From assembly GCF_030252345.1 (NCBI RefSeq), contig NZ_CP126980.1, positions 8,813,501 through 8,877,500 of the forward strand: a stretch of 64,000 nucleotides of DNA, in the 5' to 3' direction. Position numbers and translations under genes: made by a program. Under the pieces are notes generated by a model. That model was not told the DNA's origin and searched no databases. It saw only the letters and a list, made by a program, of their open reading frames with translations. Numbering within the stretch: position 1 is the stretch's first letter; each line of letters begins with the position of its first letter. Below, in pieces: positions 46,842-63,564 of this stretch. The DNA comes from Actinoplanes oblitus (GTDB lineage Bacteria > Actinomycetota > Actinomycetes > Mycobacteriales > Micromonosporaceae).

Positions 46842-47323
46842 GCCGAAGTCCTTTCGCCGAATTAGGACAGCGGCTGCCGCCTGCGGCGCATCGGCACCAT
46901 TTCGCTATAAATCAAGCCGCCAGACATCCCGCCATATCGGGATTTCCCGCATGGCACCTGCCGAGCCGCGACCGCACCGGTCGCCACGCTCGGACGAGCC
47001 TGACTAGCTCCGAAAAGGCTTACCGCATCGTCGCTCCTGGACTCCCCCGCCTCCTGTGGCCAGTGCGGTCACCCTAATACTTACTAAGGCGCCCTTCAAT
47101 GCCTGCCACCCTCCCGGCACCCTCAAGTCGGGTAATAGGCACAAACAAAACGCCTCTGTCGGTAACGAAAAAGTAACGCCCCAAGAATCACAACAAAAGA
47201 TCCACTCCGGCCCACCCCCAAAAAAACGCAGCCCGAACTTGATCCACCACTAACGACAACGAACCCAGGAAAGTCGGCGCGACCCGCCCCCGCAGTCCTC
47301 ACCGCAACCAGGAGCGGGTGTCA
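46842..47323. other. Intergenic region upstream of copper oxidase gene, no gene seen
   Basis: I find no conserved frame, RNA gene or repeat. It is more AT-rich than the surrounding DNA (for example aaaacgcctctgtcggtaac), consistent with promoters for the copper oxidase gene and a genomic border near the tRNA scar. Confidence 0.5.
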
Positions 47324-47510
47324 AGCAACCCGCCAGTTACGGCCCACCGCCACCACACGTGGGGTCCGGGAGTAACCCGCCAGTTGCGAACCACCGCCAC
47401 CACACGTGGGGTTCGGGGGTAACCCGCCGGTTGCGGCCCACCGCCACCACACGTGAGGTTCGGGGGTAACCCGCCGGTTGCGGGCCTCCGCCCCCACCGG
47501 AACGTGGGGT
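47324..47510. repeat. 47-bp tandem repeat array (about 4 copies)
   Basis: cacgtggggt-type units occur at 47,356, 47,403 and 47,450, exactly 47 bp apart, with a partial copy upstream from about 47,324. Each holds gggtaacccgcc and ccaccgccaccacac. It lies just outside the tRNA scar. Unrelated in sequence to the 62/63-bp arrays. Confidence 0.8.
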
Positions 47511-47591: not shown

Positions 47592-47635
47592 GTAGCGGGG
47601 ACAGGATTTGAACCTGCGACCTCTGGGTTATGAGC
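47592..47635 (-). tRNA. 3' half of an initiator tRNA(fMet) gene (truncated; att site)
   Basis: On the minus strand this 44-base sequence runs from the anticodon loop (CTCATAACCC, CAU anticodon) through the variable loop AGGTC and T arm (GCAGGTTCAAATCCTGT) to the acceptor end CCCCGCTAC. It matches bacterial initiator tRNA. Beyond the anticodon loop the sequence changes to CCGGCCAG and no 5' acceptor or D arm follows, so this is a scar, not a working gene. No CCA is encoded. It marks an integrase attachment site. Confidence 0.88.
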
Positions 47636-49071: not shown

Positions 49072-49617
49072 GTGAGCGGTGAGATCGAGGTCAAGTACCG
49101 GGTGCTCGACCGCGACGGCTTGTTGAAAGCCCTTGCCGCCGAAGAGATCATCCTGTCTCCTGGCTCTTATCAGGATGATCAGGCATACGCTCCGACAGGA
49201 TGGCAGCCGGGGCAACCGCGTATCGGCGTGACGTTCGTGCGGCTGCGGACGCAGGACGGCCAGTGCACGTTCACGACCAAGACGCCAGTGGACAACGTCC
49301 TCGCGTGCCAGGAGCACGAAACGGTCGTGGCGGACCGCGAGGCGATGCATCACGCCATCATGGCGATGGGCTACAGGCCGACCGTGCGCGTCGCGAAATC
49401 GCGGCGTACCGCCCGGGTCGGCGCCTACTCCCTCTGCCTGGACGAGGTGGACGGCGTAGGCACCTTCATGGAGGTCGAAGCCGTCAGCGCGCACGTCGAG
49501 GGCATGGCTGAGGTGCAGGCGGAGTTGTCGGCGTGGGTCGACAGCCTCGGCGTGGACGTTGAGCGCACTGGCGCGACGTACGACCAGCTCGTTCAGTCCG
49601 CGTCGGTGCGCGCGTAG
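49072..49617 (+). CDS. CYTH-domain protein (CyaB/triphosphatase-like)
   Basis: 181 residues. The N-terminal EIEVKYRVLD is the ExExK motif of the CYTH superfamily, followed by the charged tunnel strands VTFVRLRTQDGQCTFTTKTP, KSRRTARVG, LCLDEVDGVGTFMEVEA. CYTH enzymes hydrolyse triphosphorylated compounds (thiamine triphosphate, inorganic triphosphate) or cyclise ATP. Substrate here unknown. GTG at 49,072 follows GAAGGAG. Its 3' end overlaps the facing kinase gene by 25 bases. Confidence 0.85.
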   Translation: MSGEIEVKYRVLDRDGLLKALAAEEIILSPGSYQDDQAYAPTGWQPGQPRIGVTFVRLRTQDGQCTFTTKTPVDNVLACQEHETVVADREAMHHAIMAMGYRPTVRVAKSRRTARVGAYSLCLDEVDGVGTFMEVEAVSAHVEGMAEVQAELSAWVDSLGVDVERTGATYDQLVQSASVRA

Positions 49618-50213
49618 TTCAGGGAATGCCAGACGTTGACGATGTTGTGGAGCGCTTCCGCAACGTCGTCAGCGCCCTGGTCGCCGATGTCGTAGCTGCG
49701 GGCCGGATGGTTGCCGGCGTTGAGGATGCCGACCAGATCCCGGTATCGCTCCGCTTCTCCGGGTAGACCGCCATGAAATCGGCTGTAGTTGCCTCGGTGG
49801 GCTGCTCGGGCTCGTGAGCTGCTGGGATCGCCGTCGAGAAGGATGGTGAGATCCGGCCGCTCGATCTCGGCGTTGAGTTTCCAAATCAGCTCATCAGGTA
49901 CCCCGTCGAGGTGTTGCAGGACCAGCGACGAGGATAGGTAGCGGTCGCAGATCACGATGTTGCCGGAGGCGAGCGCCGGTCTGATCTCTGTCTCGATGTG
50001 GTGGTAGCGGTCAGCAGTGACCAGGCAGGCCAGGGCTACACCTCGGAACTGCTGAGTGCCGCCGCGCGCCAGGACGCCGATTGGCCCGGACGACGGCTCC
50101 CGGGTGACCACCACGCGGTGCCCGTTGTCGGCGAGCCGCCGCGCCAGCAGTTGCACGATGGTGGTCTTACCGATACCGCTCGGGCCGTCAATGACCACGA
50201 AGAAGCCGGTCAT
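49593..50213 (-). CDS. Thymidylate-kinase-like P-loop kinase
   Basis: 206 residues. Walker A GPSGIGKTTIV, then VVVTREPSSGPIG, and ICDRYLSSSLVLQ, the DRY-x-x-S motif for TMP/dTMP binding in thymidylate kinases. The LID region after DPSSSRARAAHRG is atypical, and the segment LNAGNHPARSYDIG differs from housekeeping Tmk. This suggests a specialised nucleoside-phosphate kinase. Start overlaps the radical SAM stop (ATGA), so it is the last gene of the operon. Confidence 0.85.
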   Translation of the reverse strand: MTGFFVVIDGPSGIGKTTIVQLLARRLADNGHRVVVTREPSSGPIGVLARGGTQQFRGVALACLVTADRYHHIETEIRPALASGNIVICDRYLSSSLVLQHLDGVPDELIWKLNAEIERPDLTILLDGDPSSSRARAAHRGNYSRFHGGLPGEAERYRDLVGILNAGNHPARSYDIGDQGADDVAEALHNIVNVWHSLNYARTDAD

Positions 50214-51697
50214 GCCGCGACCCGGCGAGCGTGCTGCTGGTGGGTCAGCTCGGCCAGGTGCCGCCGGATCTCGGGCACGGGAACGCCGCCGAACTGGATG
50301 CCGACGGAGAAGTTGAACTCGTCGCGTTCGCGCATGGCTTCGTCCGCGCCGCCGCTGGTGAGGTCGACCGCGCCATAGGCGAGCAGGTCGGCGGGCTGGT
50401 AGCGCCCGGTGGCCATGAGGCGAGCCCACTCCGGGGTGCCGGGGTAGGGCCGGAACTCGAAGACACTGGCGCGGAACCGGCCGGGCACGCGATCGGTGAT
50501 GTCCCACAGTTCGTGGACCAGCCGAACGGTCTGGTTCAGTTCGTCGGCGGTCTCGCCGGGGAAGCCGAGGATGAAGTAGCCCTTGACTCCGATGCCGCGT
50601 TCAGTGAGCCGGCGTACCACCGAGCGGATCATGTCAGGGTTGATGCGCTTGTCGATGTACTCCAGCACCCGCGAACTGCCGGACTCGATACCGAGGGCAA
50701 CTTCCCGTAGCCCGTTCGCGGCGAGTAGGTCAAGGGTGGCATCGCTGGCCCGGTCGAGAATGTTGATGCGGCCGGTGGCATCCCAGGCGGCCCACAGACC
50801 GACCTGATCGGCGGTGAAGGCGGTCGTCATCGTGTCGATGACGCGGCGCGCACCCAAGAACAGGTCATCGACGAACCGGAACGCCGTGACGCCATAGTCC
50901 TCGTGGAGCTTGTGCATTTCGCCGAGGATGTTGTCCGGCTGGCGGACGCGGATCGTGATGTCGGGGTTCGCGCTGACGGCGGCACCGCAGAACGAGCAGT
51001 CGTAGGGGCATCCACGGGCGCCGACCATGTTGGCCTCGATCCGGCCGTCTTCCGCCACTCGGGGGTCTTGGGTGAGGAAGCGTCGGTCGACGTACGGCAG
51101 GGCGTTGATGTCCGGGGCAAGGTGACGCTCCATGCCGGGACGACCACCTGTTACCGGGGTTCGCAGGATCGGATCGAGCCACATCACGCCCGGGAGGTCA
51201 GCACGGTCGCGGTGATCTTGCAGCAGCGTGACTACCCGGGTCTCGCCTTCTCCCAGGACCAGCGCAGCGGCGTGGCGCATGCGGGTGTCCATCAGGATTT
51301 CGGTCGGCATGGCCTTGGCCTGGTGGCCGCCGAGCATGATCTTGATGCCGGGGTCGAGTCCGTCGGCGATGCGGGCGCTGATCTCGTAGGTGGGGGCGAG
51401 CAGATTCAGCCCCACCCACCGCGGCCAGGTCTGGTTGATAGTCGCGACGACCTGGGCGACAGGGATGCCGTGCGCCTCGGCATCGAGTACACCGACGTTG
51501 TAGCCGTGCTTCGCGGCGTAGGTGGCGATGTAGGCCATGCCCAGCACAGGAAGGGTGAAGTCGTTGACCCGAGGCCGTACTGCGTAGTCCCGCAAAGGCG
51601 CGTTGACGAACAGCAGATCGATCTCGCGCGTCGGGTCGTGGCCGGTGATGCAGCGCGCCAGAGCAGGGATTGCGGTCGGGTCAGGGTGAACGGACAT
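50210..51697 (-). CDS. B12-binding-type radical SAM protein
   Basis: 495 residues. The N-terminal ~200 residues form a cobalamin-binding-like Rossmann domain (VNAPLRDYAVRPRVNDFTLP, then VGVLDAEAHGI, VGLNLLAPTYE, IMLGGHQAKAMP), but I do not see a complete DxHxxG cobalt-ligand motif. The radical SAM core has Cys230, Cys234 and Cys237 in GARGCPYDCSFCGA, which bind the 4Fe-4S cluster, and FILGFPGET further on. It could install a methyl group or rearrange a carbon skeleton. It overlaps its upstream neighbour by 17 bases. Confidence 0.88.
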   Translation of the reverse strand: MSVHPDPTAIPALARCITGHDPTREIDLLFVNAPLRDYAVRPRVNDFTLPVLGMAYIATYAAKHGYNVGVLDAEAHGIPVAQVVATINQTWPRWVGLNLLAPTYEISARIADGLDPGIKIMLGGHQAKAMPTEILMDTRMRHAAALVLGEGETRVVTLLQDHRDRADLPGVMWLDPILRTPVTGGRPGMERHLAPDINALPYVDRRFLTQDPRVAEDGRIEANMVGARGCPYDCSFCGAAVSANPDITIRVRQPDNILGEMHKLHEDYGVTAFRFVDDLFLGARRVIDTMTTAFTADQVGLWAAWDATGRINILDRASDATLDLLAANGLREVALGIESGSSRVLEYIDKRINPDMIRSVVRRLTERGIGVKGYFILGFPGETADELNQTVRLVHELWDITDRVPGRFRASVFEFRPYPGTPEWARLMATGRYQPADLLAYGAVDLTSGGADEAMRERDEFNFSVGIQFGGVPVPEIRRHLAELTHQQHARRVAA

Positions 51698-52517
51698 GGG
51701 TGCCTCCCCAGGCGAGAACGAGTTGCGTGAGTGCAGACAGGTCCTTTCCAGCGGTCTCGCGCCAGCGCATGGCGAAGCTGGGTTCGTCTTCCGGCCACTC
51801 CGTGGCCGGCGCAGCGCGACGGGCCCAGGTCCGGACCGCGAGATCGGCGTACGGGTAGACGGAGAAGTCACCAGACCAATCGGCGACGGCCGCACCAGCG
51901 GTCCACGGGCCGATGCGCGGTACCGCCTGGAGCGCGGTGACTAGGGCTGGTGGGTCGAGTTGCTCCCAGGTCTGCCGGTGCGTGAGATATGCGGTAGCTG
52001 CGGCTGCGAGCGCCGGCTGCTTGAAGGTCATGCGCAGCTCGGCGAAGTCGGCCGGCGAGAGATCCAATACCCGCTCGGGTGACGGGAACAGGCGATGGAC
52101 CGCGGCCGGGGCGACGGTTGTGCCGTGGGCTAGGCAGAACCTGGCGTACATCTGCCGCGCCTGAGCCGCGCGGATGACCTGGCGGATGATTGCCGTGCCG
52201 ATCGCGTCCCACAAGTCGCTGTTGCGGACCCGGCACACGGGGCCTAGCGCCTGCACGGCGGTCGCAATCTCCGACGTACCCTCGCCGCTCAGAACGACGT
52301 GATCGATCACCGGGCCGGCACCGGGGCCGCCCTGATCCGCATCGACCATGGGCCGCCTACCGGCAACGTCATGGCTCTGAAGCCGTATAGCTTCCACGCC
52401 GTCGGGTTGGTCTGCCGTCCAGGTCAGCAGCCAGGGCGCTGCACGGCAACGCATGACCCGCTCCGCGCCGTTGCTCGTAGTGATCCACGCCGGATGATCT
52501 TGCATGATGGTCGCCAT
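51681..52517 (-). CDS. HhH-GPD DNA glycosylase-like protein (AlkA-type)
   Basis: 278 residues. The C-terminal half has the helix-hairpin-helix VPRIGPWTAGAAVADWSGDF and the following YPYADLAVRTW with the likely catalytic Asp, the pattern of AlkA-type base-excision glycosylases; the N-terminal half is a variable mixed domain. It should remove alkylated bases. In a biosynthetic setting such enzymes give self-protection against DNA-damaging products. GAGGAG precedes ATG at 52,517; its 3' end overlaps the radical SAM gene by 17 bases. Confidence 0.8.
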   Translation of the reverse strand: MATIMQDHPAWITTSNGAERVMRCRAAPWLLTWTADQPDGVEAIRLQSHDVAGRRPMVDADQGGPGAGPVIDHVVLSGEGTSEIATAVQALGPVCRVRNSDLWDAIGTAIIRQVIRAAQARQMYARFCLAHGTTVAPAAVHRLFPSPERVLDLSPADFAELRMTFKQPALAAAATAYLTHRQTWEQLDPPALVTALQAVPRIGPWTAGAAVADWSGDFSVYPYADLAVRTWARRAAPATEWPEDEPSFAMRWRETAGKDLSALTQLVLAWGGTHVRSP

Positions 52518-52636
52518 GACGGTCTCCTCGTTGTGAGCCTGCGGGGGCGTCGCCGCCGAAGCAGTCTGCCTCCTTGCTGCATCAGGCACCGTGAGGAGCG
52601 GAGTCCGCGAGTGTCGTGGCCCGACGGGGGCGGCGA

Positions 52637-53083
52637 TCATGGCTTGTCCGTCGGAGGACCGGGATTGCGACTCGGCCCGGCAATGATCGCGGCCCGGGTG
52701 CGGCGTCGCGGGCGTTGGGACACGGGCCCACGTGTCCGCCTTGCCGGCTGCTCTGCGGTCAGCCGTTCCGGCGTGGCCGCAAGGTGCAGGGCGATGAGCA
52801 GCTTGGCCCAGTTGCCCGTTTCCCACATCGCCGACGCGGCGAGGGAAAATCGCACCTGGTAGCCGTCTTGCGGGTCGTCGTAAGCATCAGCGAGATGGTC
52901 GACCAACCTGTCGCTCAGCGGCTCAATACCGCAGGCACGACACGCCTTGGCAAGCAGTTGGAGGAACCTGTCGCCACGGCCTGTATGCCACGCCTCGCTG
53001 GCATGGCGGGTGACCACCTGCATATATGCCAGGCCCAACAGTTCCTCATCAAGCTGCGGCGGCGGCTCGCTCATCGGCTTCAC
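52637..53083 (-). CDS. Hypothetical protein in cargo operon
   Basis: About 148 residues. It is helical: ELLGLAYMQVVTRHASEAWH, LQLLAKACRACGIEPLSD, RFSLAASAMWETGNWAKLLI. The tail is basic and Pro-rich (RRTRGPVSQRPRRRTR). No family recognised. GTG at 53,083 overlaps the stop of the EEP gene (GTGA); ATG at 53,074 is also possible. A 119-bp gap without a gene separates it from the glycosylase gene. Confidence 0.65.
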   Translation of the reverse strand: MKPMSEPPPQLDEELLGLAYMQVVTRHASEAWHTGRGDRFLQLLAKACRACGIEPLSDRLVDHLADAYDDPQDGYQVRFSLAASAMWETGNWAKLLIALHLAATPERLTAEQPARRTRGPVSQRPRRRTRAAIIAGPSRNPGPPTDKP

Positions 53084-53976
53084 GTGGCTTTCCGATCGCG
53101 GCCGAAGCGCAGAGCGAAGGAGATCCGCCGGTGATCGGAGGGCCACCGGGAACTGCCTCCGGTCGGGATGTGGACTTGGAATGAGCCCGCCACGACGTCC
53201 GCGGCCTGCCGCATAGCGTCGTTGATCAGGACGTGGTCGACGTGCAGGTTCCGCACGTTGCTGGTTGCCGGGAACGGGCGCACGGCTTGCGGGTCCAGTT
53301 CAGCCACGGTGTGAAACCCGGAGCCCAAGATCCGGCCGCCGGCCACGGCATCGTAGGGGCCGATCAGCCGGTCGAGGGCGCTGCTCTGGCGTACCCAATC
53401 GCCATGCTCGTTGCGGTAGGCGACGTAGTCCCGTACCGAGAGGGGGACCGTGCCCCAGTCGAGATCCGGGAAGTCGGGGCCACTCGCGCTTTCGTTCAGG
53501 TCTCCCATGATCAGTGTCGGGATTTCGCTGCCGCCGTATTGCGCGAGGCGCTGGGCGCGGGCAAACCGTTCGCTGCTGTCGGAGTATGACCAGTGCTCCG
53601 TGCGCAGCTCGAATTGGAGCATGTCGTCGGCGCACAGCGCGAACCTGGCGCGGTTGCGCCGGTCGGGGTATCGGAGATCTTCGCCTTGGAGCAGGCAGAG
53701 AACGGTCGGGTCATAGATGATCGCCGTGGCCAGCGGCCCGGCATGCAGTTCGCCGACGTACGGTCGGCCACACAAGACGCGGAGTTCGCGCATAGCCGTC
53801 AGGAAGGGCTTTTCTCCGTCCCGGTGCCAGTCCTTGGCCTCGCAGAGCGCGATGACGTCGGGCGAAGGATCGTCCAGGAACGCGCGGGTCAGCCCGTCGA
53901 AATGGTGGACTCCGTCCGCGCAGAGTCCACCTGCCTCGAAGTTCAGCAGCGATCCCGTCAGTTCGACGACCGTCAC
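53080..53976 (-). CDS. Endonuclease/exonuclease/phosphatase (EEP) family protein
   Basis: 298 residues with the EEP fold: LLNFEAGG near the start, DVIALCEAKD with the metal-binding Glu, LIMGDLNES (Asp and Asn), NLHVDHVLIND and the closing WPSDHRRISFAL with the catalytic Asp-His. Members cleave phosphodiesters of DNA, lipids or small phosphates. In this operon a DNA or nucleotide substrate is plausible. Start is GTG at 53,976. No signal peptide. Confidence 0.85.
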   Translation of the reverse strand: MTVVELTGSLLNFEAGGLCADGVHHFDGLTRAFLDDPSPDVIALCEAKDWHRDGEKPFLTAMRELRVLCGRPYVGELHAGPLATAIIYDPTVLCLLQGEDLRYPDRRNRARFALCADDMLQFELRTEHWSYSDSSERFARAQRLAQYGGSEIPTLIMGDLNESASGPDFPDLDWGTVPLSVRDYVAYRNEHGDWVRQSSALDRLIGPYDAVAGGRILGSGFHTVAELDPQAVRPFPATSNVRNLHVDHVLINDAMRQAADVVAGSFQVHIPTGGSSRWPSDHRRISFALRFGRDRKAT

Positions 53977-54013
53977 GATGCTCGCGACCTTTCGCTTCGG
54001 AGGTGTTTGGAGT

Positions 54014-54068
54014 GACCGGCGGGCAAGGGCCCCGGAATCGGAGGGTGTGGAGGCATTGCCCGCCGGTC
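54014..54068 (-). terminator. Inverted repeat in the 142-bp gap of the cargo operon
   Basis: GACCGGCGGGCAA and TTGCCCGCCGGTC are perfect 13-base arms around a 29-base loop, just upstream of the EEP gene. It may be an attenuator that reduces expression of the downstream half of the operon, or a processing site. Confidence 0.5.
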
Positions 54069-54118
54069 GTCCCGTCCGACACGGCGTCCGTACCGTGACG
54101 GCGTCTTAAGGGAGCCGG

Positions 54119-54979
54119 TCAGACTGGCGGGGACCTCTCCGCCGCGGGCAAGAGGGCGACCTTCTTGGCTACGGCCCCGTACACGTAGGCCCGTTTGGCA
54201 GGGCGTTCGTGTGGCTCGGCAAGGTCCACACGCCAATCGGAGACCAGGCGGACGCCCGGCGCCGCGATTTCAAGCCCACTGAAGAAGTTGGTGAACTGGC
54301 GGCGTGATCGTGGCCGGATCTGCCCGTCCGGCGGCAGTTTCTTCATGAGCCGCTTGATCTGCCACCGCCTCCACAAGCCGACACCATCAAGCGTGAAGTT
54401 CGAGATCGCGACATAGCTGCCCGGCGGCAGTGATTCAAGTGTTCGGGCGACCAGTGCGTACGCCTGCTCATCGTTGTCCACGAAATGCAGGACGGCGCAG
54501 AATAAGACCGCGACGGGCCTGGTGAAGTCCAGCGTGTCCTTTGCCTCGGCGAGCATCCTGGCCGTGTCGTGCATGTCAACCTCGGCGTAGCCGGTGGCGC
54601 CCTCCGGCGTGCTAGTCAGCAGAGCCCGCGCATGCACCATTACCAGCGGGTCGTTGTCCACATAGACGACCCGGGCGGCAGGGTCGATGCCCTGCGCGAC
54701 TTGGTGCACATTGGGCTCTACCGGCAGGGATACGCCGACGTCGAGGAACTGCGTCACTCCGTGCTCGGCGACGAGGCATCGCACAACTCGATGCATCCAC
54801 TTACGGTTTGCCCGTGCATCCACCACAACCTGCGGATATGCCTTGGCGATTCGGTCGCCGGAGGCCCGGTCCGCGGCGTAGTTGTCCTTGCCGCCCAGCC
54901 AGTAGTTATACCGCCGGGCCACATGCGCGACCGTCGAGTCGATCTTGGGCTTGTCGTCGAAGGCTGCCATCCGAATCAC
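54119..54979 (-). CDS. SAM-dependent methyltransferase (Methyltransf_19 family)
   Basis: 286 residues. The N-terminal IDSTVAHVARRYNYWLGGKD and NYAADR are the hallmark of the actinobacterial Methyltransf_19 (DUF574) family, followed by FLDVGVSLPVEPNVHQVAQ (motif I region), VVYVDNDPLVMVHARALL and AVLFCAVLHFVDND. The usual motif I glycines are reduced (DVGVSLP). Small-molecule methyl acceptor unknown. GTG at 54,979 overlaps the upstream stop (GTGA). Confidence 0.88.
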   Translation of the reverse strand: MIRMAAFDDKPKIDSTVAHVARRYNYWLGGKDNYAADRASGDRIAKAYPQVVVDARANRKWMHRVVRCLVAEHGVTQFLDVGVSLPVEPNVHQVAQGIDPAARVVYVDNDPLVMVHARALLTSTPEGATGYAEVDMHDTARMLAEAKDTLDFTRPVAVLFCAVLHFVDNDEQAYALVARTLESLPPGSYVAISNFTLDGVGLWRRWQIKRLMKKLPPDGQIRPRSRRQFTNFFSGLEIAAPGVRLVSDWRVDLAEPHERPAKRAYVYGAVAKKVALLPAAERSPPV

Positions 54980-55707
54980 CCCGCCGTGGATGAGCAGTCA
55001 TGCACGCCGGGCCAGCGCAGGAAACGATCAGGCAAGAAGGGTGCGGTGAGGGCGGGCTGGACCAGTCCTCCTGCGGTGATGACCGGCAGCTTGGGCGGTG
55101 GCCAGTGTGGCTGCCCTCGGCGGGCGCAGCAGGCCGTGACGGTGTCGCACGCCAGCGAAATCGCGGTCACGATTACGCCGTCGGTGCAGGTGTGGCCGAT
55201 TTGGTCGAGCAGATGCCGGGCCTCGCGGCAACTGTGTTGCTGAAAGACTGCGACCGCATGCAGCCCGGCGGCCACGATCAGCCGGTGTTGGTCGCCGAAC
55301 TTGCTCGCCAGGCCGGCGAGGTCCATACAACTGCGGACGGCGTCCGGGGCGCCGGCCACCACGGCGGCGTCAGCCAGCACGGTTACGGCGGGAAGCAATC
55401 GGCCCGGGTCGACTGGCTCCTCCCGCATAGCGTGATCCACCGCAGCCGACGCGAGGGTCATGGCTTCGCGGAGACTGTCGAGGCGCAGCGCCGCCTCCGC
55501 GCGCAGCGTGTACCGCACTACCGCGTCCGGCGCGTGACGCTCGTTCAGGAGCCGGTGGGCGGTTCGCGGGAAGGCAAGCACCATGCCGCGCAACCGCTCC
55601 AGCTCGGTGTTCCCGAACAACTCCGTCACCGTGCCACTGGGCGGCGCGGCGGTCGCCTCGATGCACGGCTCGGCGAGCATCGGCCCCGACGCGCGGTGCC
55701 GGCTCAT
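54976..55707 (-). CDS. Alpha-helical hypothetical protein (cargo operon)
   Basis: 243 residues, mostly Ala/Leu-rich helices: EAALRLDSLREAMTLASAAV, LLPAVTVLADAAVVAGAPD, LIVAAGLHAVAVFQQH, then a Cys-rich DTVTACCARRGQPHW and a Pro-rich end. The layout resembles TPR-like proteins. No known family. Start overlaps the upstream 67-residue gene (ATGA). Confidence 0.65.
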   Translation of the reverse strand: MSRHRASGPMLAEPCIEATAAPPSGTVTELFGNTELERLRGMVLAFPRTAHRLLNERHAPDAVVRYTLRAEAALRLDSLREAMTLASAAVDHAMREEPVDPGRLLPAVTVLADAAVVAGAPDAVRSCMDLAGLASKFGDQHRLIVAAGLHAVAVFQQHSCREARHLLDQIGHTCTDGVIVTAISLACDTVTACCARRGQPHWPPPKLPVITAGGLVQPALTAPFLPDRFLRWPGVHDCSSTAG

Positions 55708-55907
55708 CGCAGGCCACCCCCGTTCGGCTCCCTCGGGGCCGCGCCTTCCGGCTGTGTGCCGGCCGGCAGCTCGGATGAGGTCTTGCTGTGCAGGATGCCG
55801 AGATTGGCTACCACGCCGTCCAGCTTGGACCGCGAGACCTGGACGGCTGCGTGCCGGAAGCGTGCGCCGAACCAGCCGGTGCCGGTGCGTAGAGTGCGAT
55901 TCGTCAT
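55704..55907 (-). CDS. 67-residue hypothetical protein in cargo operon
   Basis: Begins TNRTLRTGTGWFGARFRHAA and includes VQVSRSKLDGVVANLGIL before a Gly/Pro-rich tail. No match to a known family. It is coupled by ATGA to the next gene and follows the GPP34 gene by 15 bases. Could be a small partner protein, or a peptide precursor modified by the radical SAM and methyltransferase enzymes; neither is shown. Confidence 0.6.
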   Translation of the reverse strand: MTNRTLRTGTGWFGARFRHAAVQVSRSKLDGVVANLGILHSKTSSELPAGTQPEGAAPREPNGGGLR

Positions 55908-55922
55908 GGTCGACTCCCCGAG

Positions 55923-56627
55923 TTAGAACGCGGCGGTGGCGAGGTCGCCGACGGCGTAGCGGACGACCTGAACGAGGTGGGGAAGGATGGTCAGCGGCGC
56001 GTCTTTGCCTGCACGAGCGGGAATCCTGCCGGTGATGTCGAGGAGAATTGGCTCGGCCTCTTCGGTACTGAAGGGAAAGACCATGGTGCTGTGCAGGTTC
56101 AGCGACAACACCAGGGCGCACAGACAGTCCATAGCCGGGTCACATTTCCCCCGCGGGTGCCTCACCAACTGGCTGCGCAGGTCCGCGCGGATCGAGGTGA
56201 CAAGGTGCGAATCGGCGAGCTGGTAGCGGGTGCTGCGCAGCCGGCGGTGTTGTTCGAGCAGGTGCCCGCCTGCGACCAGCCCGGCGAGGGTGCGTTCGTG
56301 GAGCCGCTGGTACGGGTTGTTCCCGTCGTCGACTAGATCGACGCGGGCGCCCCGCACCACTTCCGCGATGCGTGGAGCGGGTTCCTCGGTGATCGCAGCG
56401 AGGATGTCGGTGGCGATCGGATCTGCGGCCGGGCCAGTGCGCTCACGGTTCGTGTGGATCAGCCCGTGCTTGACGTAGATGCGGTCCTGCAACAGCAGGT
56501 CGGTGAGGGTCGCGGCGGCCAGGCCGATCCCGAGCGCGCGGACGTCGATAAGGGGACGCAGGTCGTTTTGCTCGTCGTGGGCGAGCAACCACACCTTTTC
56601 TCGCAGGCTGGAGATACGCCGGACCAT
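55923..56627 (-). CDS. GPP34-type (GOLPH3-like) protein
   Basis: 234 residues. The start MVRRISSLREKVWLLAHDEQ, then GIGLAAATLTDLLLQDRIYV and ITEEPAPRIAEVVRG, and PILLDITGRIPARAG fit the bacterial GPP34 family, whose eukaryotic relatives bind phosphatidylinositol phosphate. The bacterial role is unknown. It starts on the last base of the formamidase stop (TGATG). Confidence 0.78.
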   Translation of the reverse strand: MVRRISSLREKVWLLAHDEQNDLRPLIDVRALGIGLAAATLTDLLLQDRIYVKHGLIHTNRERTGPAADPIATDILAAITEEPAPRIAEVVRGARVDLVDDGNNPYQRLHERTLAGLVAGGHLLEQHRRLRSTRYQLADSHLVTSIRADLRSQLVRHPRGKCDPAMDCLCALVLSLNLHSTMVFPFSTEEAEPILLDITGRIPARAGKDAPLTILPHLVQVVRYAVGDLATAAF

Positions 56628-57628
56628 CAGCCGGCCCTCCCGATCTCGCGGAGCGCCCGGTGGACGCCGTAGTACGGCTGTGCCCCGATGATGTGATGCT
56701 TGGCGATGGACGCGACGATGGTGTACTCGGCGTCCACGACGTTGCCGATACGTGCATGGTTGACTTGCGACACGAACTGGTACGCGTCGAGCGGGTCGAT
56801 CCCGTTGAAGGCGGCCAGGTCGTTCACCAGGCGAAGGTTGGCGCCCCGGTAGGCGTCTTCCAACGGCCGAGCGATCCCAAACGCCCCCACCCGATCGTCG
56901 GTTTCGAACCGCGGCCACCCGGCGACCCCGGACAGCACCTCCACGACCAGTGTCACGTCCATCGGGACCTCGACCCCGACGCCACACAACTCGCCCTCGC
57001 CCTGCAAAGCGTGCCCGTCCCCGACGGCAAGCAGTGCACCGTCGACATTGACTGGCAGATACACCGTCGTTCCCGCACACACCAGCGGAGAGTCGAGGTT
57101 CCCGCCATGCGCGCCCGGCACAATCGACATCCGCACTTCGCCACCAGCCGGGGCAACCCCGATGGTGCCGAGCATCGGCGCCAACTCCAGGTCTCGCGCG
57201 AACCCGTTCTCCGACCGACGCGAGACAAACCGCACGGTCCGCTGCTCCAGGTCGATCGGATACTCCCAGACCACCTCGTCCAAGGCCGGATGCAGCATCG
57301 CGGTCGCTTCCGTGGCCGTCAGGGCGCCGAAGTGCGGGAAGGTCGCGGAGAAGCCGACCTCTGCCGCAGGGGTGAGATCCACCAGATGCACCGCGAGAGC
57401 ATCCCCGGCACGCGCTCCACGCACATACAAAGGGCCCGTGACCGGGTTCAGCTCGGGCCAGCGGCACACCTTGCTGGGCAGGTCGTCCACCGACTGGACC
57501 CTGCTGTTGAAACAGTCCCTGGTGCGGATCCGCACCAGTTCGCCCGGTTCGATCTCCGCGATCGGCTTCCGCCCGCCGAACGTGTATCCAACGTTGCCCG
57601 GGACGTCCATGAAGGTGGAGTCAGCCAC
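56627..57628 (-). CDS. Acetamidase/formamidase
   Basis: 333 residues. The fold shows GYTFGGRKPIAEIEPGELVRI, then LYVRGARAGDALAVHLVDL, and SIVPGAHGGNLDSPL, the family features for hydrolysis of formamide or acetamide to the acid and ammonia. In the operon it might use an amide imported by the adjacent permease or release formate from an intermediate. It overlaps the permease 3' end by eight bases. Confidence 0.9.
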   Translation of the reverse strand: MADSTFMDVPGNVGYTFGGRKPIAEIEPGELVRIRTRDCFNSRVQSVDDLPSKVCRWPELNPVTGPLYVRGARAGDALAVHLVDLTPAAEVGFSATFPHFGALTATEATAMLHPALDEVVWEYPIDLEQRTVRFVSRRSENGFARDLELAPMLGTIGVAPAGGEVRMSIVPGAHGGNLDSPLVCAGTTVYLPVNVDGALLAVGDGHALQGEGELCGVGVEVPMDVTLVVEVLSGVAGWPRFETDDRVGAFGIARPLEDAYRGANLRLVNDLAAFNGIDPLDAYQFVSQVNHARIGNVVDAEYTIVASIAKHHIIGAQPYYGVHRALREIGRAG

Positions 57629-59051
57629 GGTGACCCACCACCACAGCGTCGTCGACCGACGGTGTGACGGCCAAACTCGGCATCGACGGTGAGCGGCCCC
57701 TCGCCCACTTCACCAGCAAGATGACCCCACCGATCCCGAGCCAGAACAGACCGAACCGAGCGGCGAGGACGTTCTGATTGATCATGACGTACACCAGGCT
57801 GGCGATCCCGACGACCGGCAGCACCCAACAGCGAAACCACCCAGCGATCCGGCGCTCCCCTGCCCGGAAGTTACGCACCAGCACGGACAGGTGCACCACC
57901 ACGAAACTGGTCAGCGCACCGAAATTCACCAGCGACAGCAGTTCCGTGATGCCGTTCTTGCGCAGCGACATCCCCACACAGATAGACAGCGACAGCCCGG
58001 CGGTGACCAGGATCGCGCGGGTCGGCACCAATCGCGTCACCGAAATCTTCCCCAACCACTTCGGCAACGCCCCATCCCGCGCCATCACATGCAACAACCT
58101 GCTGAGCGCGACCTGGGCCACCATGTTGTTCGCGACACCCCATGCCAACGCCGTCGCCAGCGCCGTCAGCGTCGCCAGCCACGGCCCTACCGCAGCGCGG
58201 ACGGTGTCGTAGAACGCCGTCCCGGCCGGATCACCGTTCGCAATCAGCGCGGCAGGGTCCTTGACCAGCAACGACGCCAAGTACATCTGCGCGGTGAACG
58301 CGATCCCGACAATGCACAACGACACGATCTGCGCCCGGCCGACCTGCCGGCCACCGCCCTTGGCGTCCTCGGCCATCGCGGCGAGCGTGTCATAGCCCAG
58401 ATACGACAGGCACGCCACGGAGACCCCCGTGCCCAGCACCGCCAGAGTGAAGTGACTGTTGTAGAACGGATCGAGCGAGAATCCACGGCCGGCGCCCGAC
58501 GCCAGCGCCGCGACCGCGGCCACGACGAAGATGCCCAGCACCACAGCCTGGAGCGCGAGGAACACCCAGCCCGCGATCCTGGTCGTCTTGAGCCCCCGCA
58601 AATTGATCCCGGTGTTGATCAACACGAACACCACGATCCATCCCCATGGCGGCAACCACGGCGCGAACGCTGCCATGTTCGTTGCAGCCACCAGCGACAA
58701 CAGCGGAGGTACGAGGATGTAATCGAGTTGCAGCATCCAACCGGCCAGCCACCCCACCCAGGCGGAGATCGCCCGACCCGCATACGTGAAGACCGACCCC
58801 GCCGCCTGATACGCCTGCGCCAGGATCCCGAACGACGACGCAGTCATCATCATCACGACCACCCCGACCAGATACGACAACGCCGCCATCCCACCGGCCG
58901 ACTGGAAGGCGTTGCCGAAAATCCCCATCGGCGCAATCAACACCATGAACACCACGGCGTGACGAACCATGTCGCCGAGGCTGTACGTACGTGTCAGCCG
59001 GCGTTCGACCTGTTGTTCGCCGCTACGGCTATCGAGGGCTTGCGCAGTCAC
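57621..59051 (-). CDS. APC-family amino acid/amine permease
   Basis: 476 residues with about twelve membrane helices. The N-terminal RTYSLGDMVRHAVVFMVLI and GSVFTYAGRAISAWVGWLAG fit the amino acid-polyamine-organocation family (putative-amino-acid or putrescine importer class). Substrate unknown. The start is GTG at 59,051, with AAAGG seven bases upstream. It is the first gene of the minus-strand operon and presumably imports a precursor. Confidence 0.9.
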   Translation of the reverse strand: MTAQALDSRSGEQQVERRLTRTYSLGDMVRHAVVFMVLIAPMGIFGNAFQSAGGMAALSYLVGVVVMMMTASSFGILAQAYQAAGSVFTYAGRAISAWVGWLAGWMLQLDYILVPPLLSLVAATNMAAFAPWLPPWGWIVVFVLINTGINLRGLKTTRIAGWVFLALQAVVLGIFVVAAVAALASGAGRGFSLDPFYNSHFTLAVLGTGVSVACLSYLGYDTLAAMAEDAKGGGRQVGRAQIVSLCIVGIAFTAQMYLASLLVKDPAALIANGDPAGTAFYDTVRAAVGPWLATLTALATALAWGVANNMVAQVALSRLLHVMARDGALPKWLGKISVTRLVPTRAILVTAGLSLSICVGMSLRKNGITELLSLVNFGALTSFVVVHLSVLVRNFRAGERRIAGWFRCWVLPVVGIASLVYVMINQNVLAARFGLFWLGIGGVILLVKWARGRSPSMPSLAVTPSVDDAVVVGHRG

Positions 59052-59589: not shown

Positions 59590-60858
59590 ATGTCCCCTCG
59601 ATCTACCGGCAACGCTCGGCTGAAGGCCGCACGGCAGCACGCTGGCTACGCGTCCCAGCAGGCGTTCGCGAGCGCGTTGATGGACGCTGCGCCGCGGATC
59701 GGACTCGGCCATATTGAGGTAAGCCTGCGCCAGATCCGCCGCTGGGAGTCGCCGACACCGCCTTGGCCGCGTGCCGATCACCAGCGCTTGCTCACCCATC
59801 TCCTTAGGCAGCCGATCGAGCAGCTCGGCTTCACTCCGCCGTGGGATCCCGTCGACAGGACTTCCGTCGATCCCGAGTCCAGCTCCGCGCCGAGGCAGTT
59901 CCCGGCGGGCCTACCGCTACCTCAAGCCGAGGTCTCGGTCCAGCCGTCAACGATCGGTGCTGACTACAACGCGATCACTGTTGCCCATCGCCGCATGTAC
60001 TGGAGCGTCCAGCCGACCCACCTTCACCCGACGGTCGTTGAGCACACACGACTCGGCCTTCACTTGCTCTCAGAAACAAGTGGTGTTGCCCGCCGTTTAC
60101 TGGCGACGGCCTTGGCTGAGTCGCTGTTGCTCGCGGGACGCATCGAATTCTTCGATATCCGCCTAGTTAACGAGGCAGATGCCACCTTCGTCCGCGCGCT
60201 TCAGGCCGCGGGGGAAGCTGACGACGCTCTCCTCGGAGCTGCAATTCTTGCTCACGCAGCATTCATTCCCGGATGGGCGCAACGCTACAACGAAGCTGCC
60301 GACCGACTGCGTGCCGCACGCACATATGCCCGCCGCGCTCCTGCGTCTGCCGAATTTCTAGCATGGATCGACGCTGTTGATGCAGAGTGTCAAACTCTCT
60401 GCGGACGCCCAGCAGATGCGCTCCATATCATTTCCCGCGCCGAGGAAATCATCAAGAAACCCAACGATCATAGGTCACCTGAATGGTTCACATGGTTTTC
60501 TCCAGCAAGGCTGGCTGCATTTAAGGGGAACACCCAACTCAAGACCGGTCGGTACGCGCAGGCGCGCGATTCCCTGATGGCCGCCTTGTCTGGCGTCCCC
60601 GCCGACGAGGGCAAACAGCGCACCGTCATCTTGGGTGATCTTGCGGCTGTTGAAGTGGCTCAAGAAAAGCCGCAGGAAGCCTGCATGCGCATCGAAGAAG
60701 CCCTCGACCAGCTCGCGATCACTTGGTATGCCACGGGCATGGAGCGCATCCGTGAGGTTCGTCACGAGTTACAACCGTGGGCGGATACCGAGCATGTCAG
60801 GCGGGTCGATGATCGCCTATATAGCTGGCAGACAACGCTCAGCGTGTTGCAGCGTTAA
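59590..60858 (+). CDS. XRE-family regulator with C-terminal TPR-like region
   Basis: 422 residues. An N-terminal HTH-type segment (NARLKAARQHAGYASQQAFA, then VSLRQIRRWESPTPPWPR) is followed by a long helical TPR-like sensor half (about residues 125-422). It is the only dedicated regulator near the operon and is transcribed away from it. In actinomycetes, HTH-TPR proteins of this type control secondary metabolism and often respond to small peptides or metabolites. GGAGG lies seven bases before ATG. Confidence 0.82.
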   Translation: MSPRSTGNARLKAARQHAGYASQQAFASALMDAAPRIGLGHIEVSLRQIRRWESPTPPWPRADHQRLLTHLLRQPIEQLGFTPPWDPVDRTSVDPESSSAPRQFPAGLPLPQAEVSVQPSTIGADYNAITVAHRRMYWSVQPTHLHPTVVEHTRLGLHLLSETSGVARRLLATALAESLLLAGRIEFFDIRLVNEADATFVRALQAAGEADDALLGAAILAHAAFIPGWAQRYNEAADRLRAARTYARRAPASAEFLAWIDAVDAECQTLCGRPADALHIISRAEEIIKKPNDHRSPEWFTWFSPARLAAFKGNTQLKTGRYAQARDSLMAALSGVPADEGKQRTVILGDLAAVEVAQEKPQEACMRIEEALDQLAITWYATGMERIREVRHELQPWADTEHVRRVDDRLYSWQTTLSVLQR

Positions 60859-62382: not shown

Positions 62383-63564
62383 TCAACGCACTACCTCCTT
62401 GATGTTGGTGTTGCCGTCTTTGGTGATCGCGACGATGAGTCCGGGAGCGCCGCCGGTGCCGTGGGCGTGGCGCCACCAGGTGGATTCGGCTTCCATGGAC
62501 GGGACCTGGATGAAGGTCCGCGGCCCGTCGGTGTCGACCAGCTCGTGGTGCAGGTGGCCGGCGACCAGGAGATCGGCCTGGTGCATCGCGGAGTCCTTGT
62601 TGAAGGCTTGGCCGCGCCACCAGTCGAAATGCCGGCCCGGTTTCCACTGGTGTCCATGGGCGTGGGCTACGACGGTGCCTGCGATGTCCAGGACGACAGT
62701 CAGTTCGTCGGTGCCCGGGGTGTAGAACTCGACGTGGCCGAACGCGGCCGGGTTGAGCTGCACGGCGTCGTGCACGGCGATCAGCGCATCGGTGTCGTGG
62801 CTGTCGTCGTATCGGGTGAGGCCGCGGCCGGCGATCCGCGCTGCTTCGCCGTGATTGCCTGGCACCGCAGCCATGGACACCCGCTCGGCGAGCGGGGCGA
62901 ACAGCTCCACGGCGTGCAGCATCACGCGTCGGGTGAGCCGAAGCTGATCGGTCAGCGGCAAGGAGGTCCGCCACGTGTTGGCGCCGGCCTGCGCGGTGTA
63001 GCCCTCGATGTGATCGCCGAGCCAACCCACGTGGACGCGGCCGATGTCGCACCGCTTGCGGTACTCCACCAGCAGGTCCGCGGCTCGGTTGAGGCAGCCG
63101 ATCGTGCGGTGCAGCGCGCCGGCCGCACCGTCGCCGTCGATCTTGCCGAACTGCATGTCGCCGAGCAGCACCAGGAAGCCGTGGTCGCCGTCGGGCCGGC
63201 GCGGTGCCGGCTCGTGTGCCTGGACCTGGGCCAGTAGTTCGTCCAGCGGCACGCCATCTGTGCTGGTGCGATCGGTGCGGGTGAAGGCGTAGCGGGTGCT
63301 GACGCCTTCGCCGCCGCCGGCCATGGTCCAGGTCGATGAACGGAACCCGGTGACCGTCCAGCCGGCAGGGTCAAGGCCCTGGGCGCGCAGGTAGGCGCTG
63401 GCGGCGTCCTCGGTGACCTCGTCGCTCTGGCCGCGGACGGTGACCGTTGCGGTGTCGCCGCGGACTTCGAGCTGGCGGGTGAAGTCCCGCTCGGTGGTCA
63501 GCCGCGCAGGGATGCTCAGGCCGACGGGCTTGGCCAGCAGCTCGGCCAGAAGGTCATCGGTCAT
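62383..63564 (-). CDS. Phage-type metallophosphoesterase
   Basis: 393 residues. Calcineurin-type metal motifs: LLGDMQFGK (GD), VGWLGDHIEGY (GDH), AAVPGNHGEAA (GNHE-like), AHAHGHQW and VAGHLHHELV (GHxH). The N-terminal 130 residues are specific. Enzymes like this on actinophages are probably DNA nucleases or phosphatases. It overlaps the next gene upstream by 11 bases. Confidence 0.85.
   Translation of the reverse strand: MTDDLLAELLAKPVGLSIPARLTTERDFTRQLEVRGDTATVTVRGQSDEVTEDAASAYLRAQGLDPAGWTVTGFRSSTWTMAGGGEGVSTRYAFTRTDRTSTDGVPLDELLAQVQAHEPAPRRPDGDHGFLVLLGDMQFGKIDGDGAAGALHRTIGCLNRAADLLVEYRKRCDIGRVHVGWLGDHIEGYTAQAGANTWRTSLPLTDQLRLTRRVMLHAVELFAPLAERVSMAAVPGNHGEAARIAGRGLTRYDDSHDTDALIAVHDAVQLNPAAFGHVEFYTPGTDELTVVLDIAGTVVAHAHGHQWKPGRHFDWWRGQAFNKDSAMHQADLLVAGHLHHELVDTDGPRTFIQVPSMEAESTWWRHAHGTGGAPGLIVAITKDGNTNIKEVVR

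What the first reader, a model, noticed from the sequence alone, without database searches (positions are those of the whole stretch)
49593..59051. Eleven-gene cargo operon that I do not recognise as a described pathway
Permease, formamidase, GPP34-like protein, two unknowns, Methyltransf_19, EEP-fold phosphatase/nuclease, unknown, HhH glycosylase, B12-type radical SAM enzyme and TMP-kinase-like protein run on one strand, with mostly 1-17 base overlaps at the junctions. A CYTH protein faces it and an XRE-TPR regulator and HAD phosphatase flank it. Nucleotide, phosphate and DNA-repair enzymes together with an importer suggest synthesis of, or defence against, a nucleotide-derived or DNA-active compound.
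Basis: partly seen in the sequence, partly recalled or inferred. Interest (0 to 1): 0.78.

Follow-up and report, generated by a model that had tools for sequence, protein, structure and literature searches.

The report
Prophage-borne nucleotide-chemistry gene cassette
Inside a prophage sits a compact, recurring set of four genes, also seen in another phage, on plasmids and elsewhere on chromosomes, that looks built to make or handle an unusual nucleotide while protecting the carrier's own DNA; what it really does is untested.

Summary
The eleven genes are real, but they are not one conserved pathway. They lie in a 52,308-bp prophage in tRNA-Met (44-bp att repeat; integrase, capsid, portal, terminase, tape measure beyond the window). 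One part is conserved: DNA glycosylase (HhH) - B12-type radical SAM - TMP-kinase-like, plus the convergent CYTH gene. Of 61 radical-SAM loci in species genomes, 57 have a base glycosylase beside it, 53 a TMP-kinase-like gene, 57 a nucleotide-hydrolase-type gene; 12 random stretches and 18 loci of other B12-radical-SAM proteins have no glycosylase, kinase or CYTH. The other eight genes rarely or never travel with it. Two slots keep a role while changing fold: HhH or UDG glycosylase; NUDIX, CYTH or MazG-like hydrolase. The set recurs in Streptomyces phage SF3, on the four plasmids read (radical SAM gene on 13), and elsewhere in the same chromosome. Best reading, by inference: a cassette that makes an abnormal nucleotide (radical SAM plus kinase) and keeps it out of its carrier's pool and DNA (hydrolase plus glycosylase), probably against rival phages or bacteria. 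Chemistry and purpose are untested; no enrichment of defence genes nearby was shown.

The parts
49072..49617 (+). CYTH-domain protein, convergent with the cassette; fills the nucleotide-phosphohydrolase slot here
   Evidence: Pfam CYTH 42.4 bits; the 12 charged positions looked at are kept in 22 or 23 of 23 rows; near the radical SAM gene in 21 of 61 loci, in 2 of them together with NUDIX
49593..50213 (-). TMP-kinase-like protein (206 aa)
   Evidence: TIGR00041 113.5 bits, cut-off 83.25; position 99, Tyr in the host's housekeeping enzyme, is L, M or V in 60 of 61 rows
50210..51697 (-). B12-binding radical SAM enzyme (495 aa)
   Evidence: Pfam; C230 and C237 in 73 of 73 rows, C234 in 72 of 73; model pLDDT 89.8, nearest solved folds AprD4, MgmA, OxsB, TsrM
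51681..52517 (-). HhH DNA glycosylase (278 aa)
52637..53083 (-). small unknown protein, not conserved with the cassette
   Evidence: 0 families; 0 of 73 cassette loci
53080..53976 (-). EEP-fold phosphatase/nuclease; accessory
   Evidence: Pfam 30.2 bits; beside the cassette in 1 of 73 loci (L010); relatives in 23 of 250 genomes of the family, G000 included
54119..54979 (-). Methyltransf_19 protein; accessory
   Evidence: Pfam 303.6 bits; somewhere in 5 of 73 cassette loci
54976..55707 (-). unknown protein, 243 aa
   Evidence: 0 families; 0 of 73
55704..55907 (-). 67-aa ORF
   Evidence: ORF list; no PHROG; 0 of 73
55923..56627 (-). GPP34 protein
   Evidence: Pfam 82.3 bits; 0 of 73
56627..57628 (-). 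FmdA_AmdA-family protein
   Evidence: Pfam 98 bits; 57 of 500 bits for FmdA proper; 0 of 73
57621..59051 (-). amino-acid-type permease
   Evidence: Pfam 103.8 bits; 1 of 73
47592..47635 (.). attL of the prophage: 44-bp exact copy of the 3' part of a tRNA-Met gene (other copy at G000:C1:8913400, 52,308 bp away)
59590..60858 (+). putative XRE-TPR regulator flanking the cargo
62383..63564 (-). phage exonuclease of the prophage body, inside the window
   Evidence: phrog_284, 288 bits

Best explanation
The meaningful unit is a four-part cassette (DNA glycosylase, B12-type radical SAM enzyme, TMP-kinase-like protein, nucleotide-phosphohydrolase-type protein), here carried as accessory cargo near attL of a 52.3-kb prophage. 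Proposed working: the radical SAM enzyme rebuilds the sugar or base of a nucleotide (inferred); the TMP-kinase-like enzyme, whose substrate pocket has changed, phosphorylates it (inferred); the product is an abnormal nucleotide that harms whatever copies DNA or RNA with it (inferred); the CYTH, NUDIX or MazG-like protein clears it from the carrier's pool and the glycosylase cuts it out of the carrier's DNA (inferred from fold and kept catalytic-type residues). Likely use: inhibition of rival phages or competing bacteria by the host of the prophage or plasmid. Shown by computation: the set, its recurrence, the prophage setting, the predicted folds, the kept residues and the exchange of folds within two slots. 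Not shown: any activity.
Confidence: 0.42

Rival explanations
1. A nucleoside natural-product cassette in the manner of oxetanocin: the radical SAM enzyme makes a modified nucleoside for export as an antibiotic, and the glycosylase and hydrolase are self-resistance.
For: OxsB fold match; OxsB and AlsB use dATP and dAMP, OxsA is a phosphohydrolase (passages); the region of the albucidin radical SAM genes also lists a thymidylate kinase in its table; a permease is in the window.
Against: No exporter or tailoring family recurs in 4 or more of 61 loci except ABC-type proteins in 8 loci, and the 137 sampled neighbours show no common one; permease in 1 of 73 loci; small, self-contained and carried by a phage.
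Confidence: 0.2
2. A lesion-repair and pool-sanitation module: the glycosylase removes a particular damaged base, the hydrolase removes the damaged nucleotide, and radical SAM and kinase restore or recycle it.
For: Both exchangeable slots are typical repair and sanitation folds.
Against: A motif GAAC-N4-GTTC (SOS-box form, recalled) was found upstream of 0 of 63 glycosylase genes; about 0.8 would be expected by chance, so this shows no enrichment, not a lack. Rare: beside G000 itself 5 of 199 sampled genomes of the order and 0 of 395 of the phylum (only a few candidates were scored per genome, so lower bounds).
Confidence: 0.18
3. A phage or plasmid DNA-modification pathway: the modified nucleotide is built into the element's own DNA to escape restriction; the hydrolase removes the normal form.
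For: TMP-kinase-like and NUDIX proteins are known from phages (PHROG hits); carried by phage SF3.
Against: Also on chromosomes and plasmids where I recognised no head-tail genes in the 8-10 kb read on each side; a glycosylase that cuts abnormal bases would work against it, unless it removes only unmodified or wrong ones.
Confidence: 0.13

Closest known systems
OxsB/OxsA (oxetanocin A) and AlsB (albucidin)
   Different: The window enzyme has 495 aa and no room for OxsB's N-terminal domain; its recurrent partners are HhH or UDG glycosylase, TMP-kinase-like and NUDIX/CYTH/MazG-like proteins.
Viperin with CMPK2 (animal antiviral pair)
   Same: A radical SAM enzyme together with a nucleotide kinase makes a chain-terminating nucleotide (passages of PMC10058120); that CMPK2 is a TMP-kinase relative is recalled.
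PADLOC candidate system PDC-M51 (proteins A and B)
   Same: Its A and B models are matched by B12-type radical SAM proteins and TMP kinases, so a similar pair has been flagged as a phage-defence candidate.
   Different: The match is not specific: the host's housekeeping TMK (58 bits) and four unrelated B12-radical SAM proteins (44-66 bits) score higher than the window pair (47 and 27 bits), and the phage SF3 radical SAM protein does not match at all.
AlkA/OGG1 DNA glycosylases
   Same: Full-length fold with the HhH hairpin and an invariant Asp after it.
   Different: Only about 16% identity, under the Pfam cut-off; where hOGG1 has its catalytic Lys there is an invariant Trp, as in AlkA (aligned by eye, residues recalled), so action without strand cleavage is expected.

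Membership tests
Integrated prophage | att repeats at a tRNA gene, integrase beside one att, head-tail genes between | tested here: met
   44-bp repeat, intact tRNA-Met at the far end; PHROGs integrase 149 bits, major head 208, tape measure 594, terminase 203, portal 408. Ability to excise is not tested.
HhH DNA glycosylase superfamily | Fold and invariant catalytic-type Asp | tested here: met
HhH DNA glycosylase superfamily | Score over the Pfam HhH-GPD gathering cut-off | tested here: not met
   19.6 against 26.2 bits
B12-dependent radical SAM enzymes | B12-binding domain plus CxxxCxxC radical SAM core | tested here: met
   actual cobalamin binding is not tested
OxsB/AlsB | Four domains including an N-terminal one | tested here: not met
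   495 aa with the B12-binding domain at residues 48-158 leaves no room for it
Viperin | Radical SAM protein without B12 domain (recalled) | tested here: not met
   B12-binding domain 60.7 bits, cut-off 32.1
PDC-M51 | Specific match of both proteins to the PADLOC models | tested here: not met
   unrelated controls score higher
Thymidylate kinase | NCBIfam TIGR00041 cut-off | tested here: met
   113.5 against 83.25 bits
Thymidylate kinase | dTMP as substrate | not testable with these tools
   Tyr-to-Leu change at position 99 makes another substrate plausible; that this Tyr shuts out ribonucleotides is recalled
Anti-phage defence system | Lowers phage plating | not testable with these tools
   no experiment; the PADLOC neighbourhood comparison gives no clear enrichment

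The most novel reading that the evidence does not exclude
A previously unrecognised kind of mobile immunity: a phage- and plasmid-borne B12-radical SAM enzyme and a dedicated kinase make a poison nucleotide, the bacterial counterpart of viperin-CMPK2 but aimed at DNA copying, while a dedicated DNA glycosylase (HhH or UDG fold) and a dedicated nucleotide hydrolase (NUDIX, CYTH or MazG fold) make the carrier immune.
Probability: 0.28. Interest if true: 0.92.

Novelty: new variant of a known kind. Interest (0 to 1): 0.7.

Why it matters
The set joins radical nucleotide chemistry with DNA base excision in one small unit that phages and plasmids carry. If the product is an abnormal nucleotide, it would be a new natural nucleotide analogue with its own resistance enzymes attached, of use for antivirals and as a tool in DNA repair, and it would extend the viperin principle to DNA. 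The swap of unrelated folds in two slots makes the logic testable with single-gene deletions.

Tried and rejected
Rejected: the eleven genes as one pathway. Rejected: membership of PDC-M51. Tried without a positive result: enrichment of defence genes near the cassette. Of 430 neighbour ORFs (my own simple ORF caller) within about 4.5 kb in 61 loci I drew 150 at random and gave 137 to the scans; I left out 13 by hand: six core genes or pieces of them that had slipped in, four genes of L058, two very long proteins and one more. The 137 matched 23 PADLOC models, one member each; the 127 control ORFs, all that the caller found in 12 stretches, matched 6 models, mad3 by 4 members. How many different proteins this is cannot be read from the output. 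Five loci hold a relative of a type IV restriction-type protein (PADLOC class read for one copy), directly upstream of the glycosylase in two (L043, L045) and further off in L046, L051, L061; they look like one lineage, and I did not count them as support. Tried: SOS boxes upstream (0 of 63). Tried: EEP as a fixed partner; relatives occur in 23 of 250 genomes of the family, and the four 16-17-kb EEP loci fetched lack the radical SAM gene. L113 has a UDG-like gene beside TMK and radical SAM, but Pfam gives it no hit, so it is tentative and not counted. Paper searches for the set; nothing in their listings describes it. PMC5336643 (passages only) lists the phage SF3 genes one by one in a table (HhH-GPD, none, TMPK, Nudix). 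Passages only were also seen of PMC13331322, PMC10058120, PMC7074753 and PMC7159879.

The seeds for the partner genes came in part from these loci; the controls used the same seeds, but the 18 other-radical-SAM loci are mostly not actinobacterial. The tree is the quick kind with 67 rows: the window, and 66 of 72 full-length frames after I left out 6 duplicates; 7 of the 61 loci have no full-length frame and are not in it (L056, L059, L062, L063, L068, L069, L087). Hydrolase labels there come, in part set by hand. Of the 9 IMG/VR loci one is phage SF3 itself and one has the contig length of L032.
Full report
WHAT IS THERE. Seven of ten junctions overlap by 1-17 bases; three are gaps of 15, 142 and 119 bp. 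The CYTH gene at 49072-49617 converges on the kinase gene and overlaps it by 25 bp. The formamidase label is too specific: the protein is in the FmdA_AmdA family but scores 57 against a 500-bit cut-off for FmdA.

THE ELEMENT IS A PROPHAGE. At 47592-47635 lies the 3' part of a tRNA-Met gene; the same 44 bp stand 52,308 bp further on, within an intact tRNA-Met gene and beside an integrase. Between them PHROGs identifies integrase, major head, tape measure, large terminase, portal, minor tail, DnaB-like helicase and exonucleases (9 proteins were scanned). The cargo is the attL-side accessory region.

WHAT IS CONSERVED. A scan of one genome per species gave 61 loci with the radical SAM gene at 46% identity or more in the best segment (L010-L069 and L087; the other 18 of the 79 loci are at 24-35%). 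A base glycosylase lies beside it in 57 of 61 (55 HhH, 2 UDG), a TMP-kinase-like gene in 53, and a NUDIX, CYTH or MazG-like gene in 57 (layouts). The same seeds find no glycosylase, kinase or CYTH in 12 random actinobacterial stretches (180 kb) or in the 18 other loci (265 kb; one NUDIX). The other genes of the eleven do not follow: in 73 cassette loci 0 for the formamidase-like, GPP34, 67-aa and both further unknown genes, 1 for permease, 1 for EEP, 5 for Methyltransf_19. A second copy with glycosylase, radical SAM, kinase and CYTH lies 4.7 Mb away in the same chromosome, 78% identical in the radical SAM protein.

WHERE ELSE. Streptomyces phage SF3 carries HhH, radical SAM, TMK and NUDIX next to its integrase. 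The radical SAM gene is on 13 of 72,556 plasmid records, 12 Streptomyces and 1 Kitasatospora; the four I read have HhH, radical SAM and TMK in order, followed by NUDIX in three and a MazG-like gene in one. Of 10 IMG/VR loci 9 belong to the family, one of them phage SF3 itself; the 8 that reach far enough upstream carry all four genes, and L106 begins at the radical SAM gene. Outside actinobacteria: Acanthopleuribacter has radical SAM, UDG and NUDIX, an alphaproteobacterial genome radical SAM and UDG, a chloroflexotal one radical SAM and a glycosylase-like HhH protein that Pfam does not list, in an element with a multi-ubiquitin protein and a MobF-like relaxase (relaxase by eye). It is rare: besides G000 itself 5 of 199 genomes of the order and 0 of 395 of the phylum, and in samples of other phyla 2 of 398, 1 of 199 and 1 of 400, the first two counts including the genome that brought the phylum in. 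Few candidates were scored per genome, so these are lower bounds.

HOW IT MAY WORK. Two slots keep a function while the fold changes: base excision (HhH or UDG) and nucleotide phosphate hydrolysis (NUDIX, CYTH, MazG-like). On a quick radical SAM tree the hydrolase label needs 5 changes, 2 being the least possible. That is what one expects of protective functions around a fixed chemistry. Hence the proposal: radical SAM plus kinase make an abnormal nucleotide, hydrolase and glycosylase keep it from the carrier. A phage- or plasmid-borne set of this kind would most simply serve against rivals. These steps are inference. Against it: no clear defence-gene enrichment, no known product, the kinase not found in 8 of 61 loci, and a tree that partly follows taxonomy.

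WHAT IS KNOWN. OxsB/OxsA and AlsB show that B12-radical SAM enzymes can rebuild deoxynucleotides (passages read); viperin with CMPK2 shows the antiviral use of radical SAM plus kinase (passages). The set here fails a membership test for each of them and for PDC-M51. Six paper searches listed no description of it; most subscription papers are not in that library.

Noticed in passing
47592-47635 and G000:C1:8913400-8913443: 44-bp att repeats of a 52.3-kb prophage in tRNA-Met; most of the prophage lies beyond the window's right end.
   Followed up: yes
G000:C1:4172316-4173764 (L094): Second copy of the glycosylase-radical SAM-kinase-CYTH set in the same chromosome, near a transposase-like gene and a regulator-like gene (by eye).
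   Followed up: partly
window 47320-47490: About three imperfect tandem repeats (period near 58 bp, by eye) just outside attL.
   Followed up: no
L095:11806-14880; L043, L045, L046, L051, L061: A type IV restriction-type protein (PADLOC mREase_IV, 899 bits for L095) stands directly upstream of the cassette in L043 and L045 and further off in L046, L051 and L061.
   Followed up: partly
L115:3802-5649: Multi-ubiquitin protein (Pfam 59 bits) and an E1-like protein (weak PADLOC E1-E2 hits) near the chloroflexotal radical SAM and HhH genes.
   Followed up: partly
L089 (Streptomyces phage SF3): The phage is called virulent in the title of its paper (PMC5336643), but its record annotates an integrase beside the cassette.
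   Followed up: no
L014:8537-9148: In Nocardia brevicatena a kinase gene stands before the glycosylase gene, so the gene order is not fixed.
   Followed up: no
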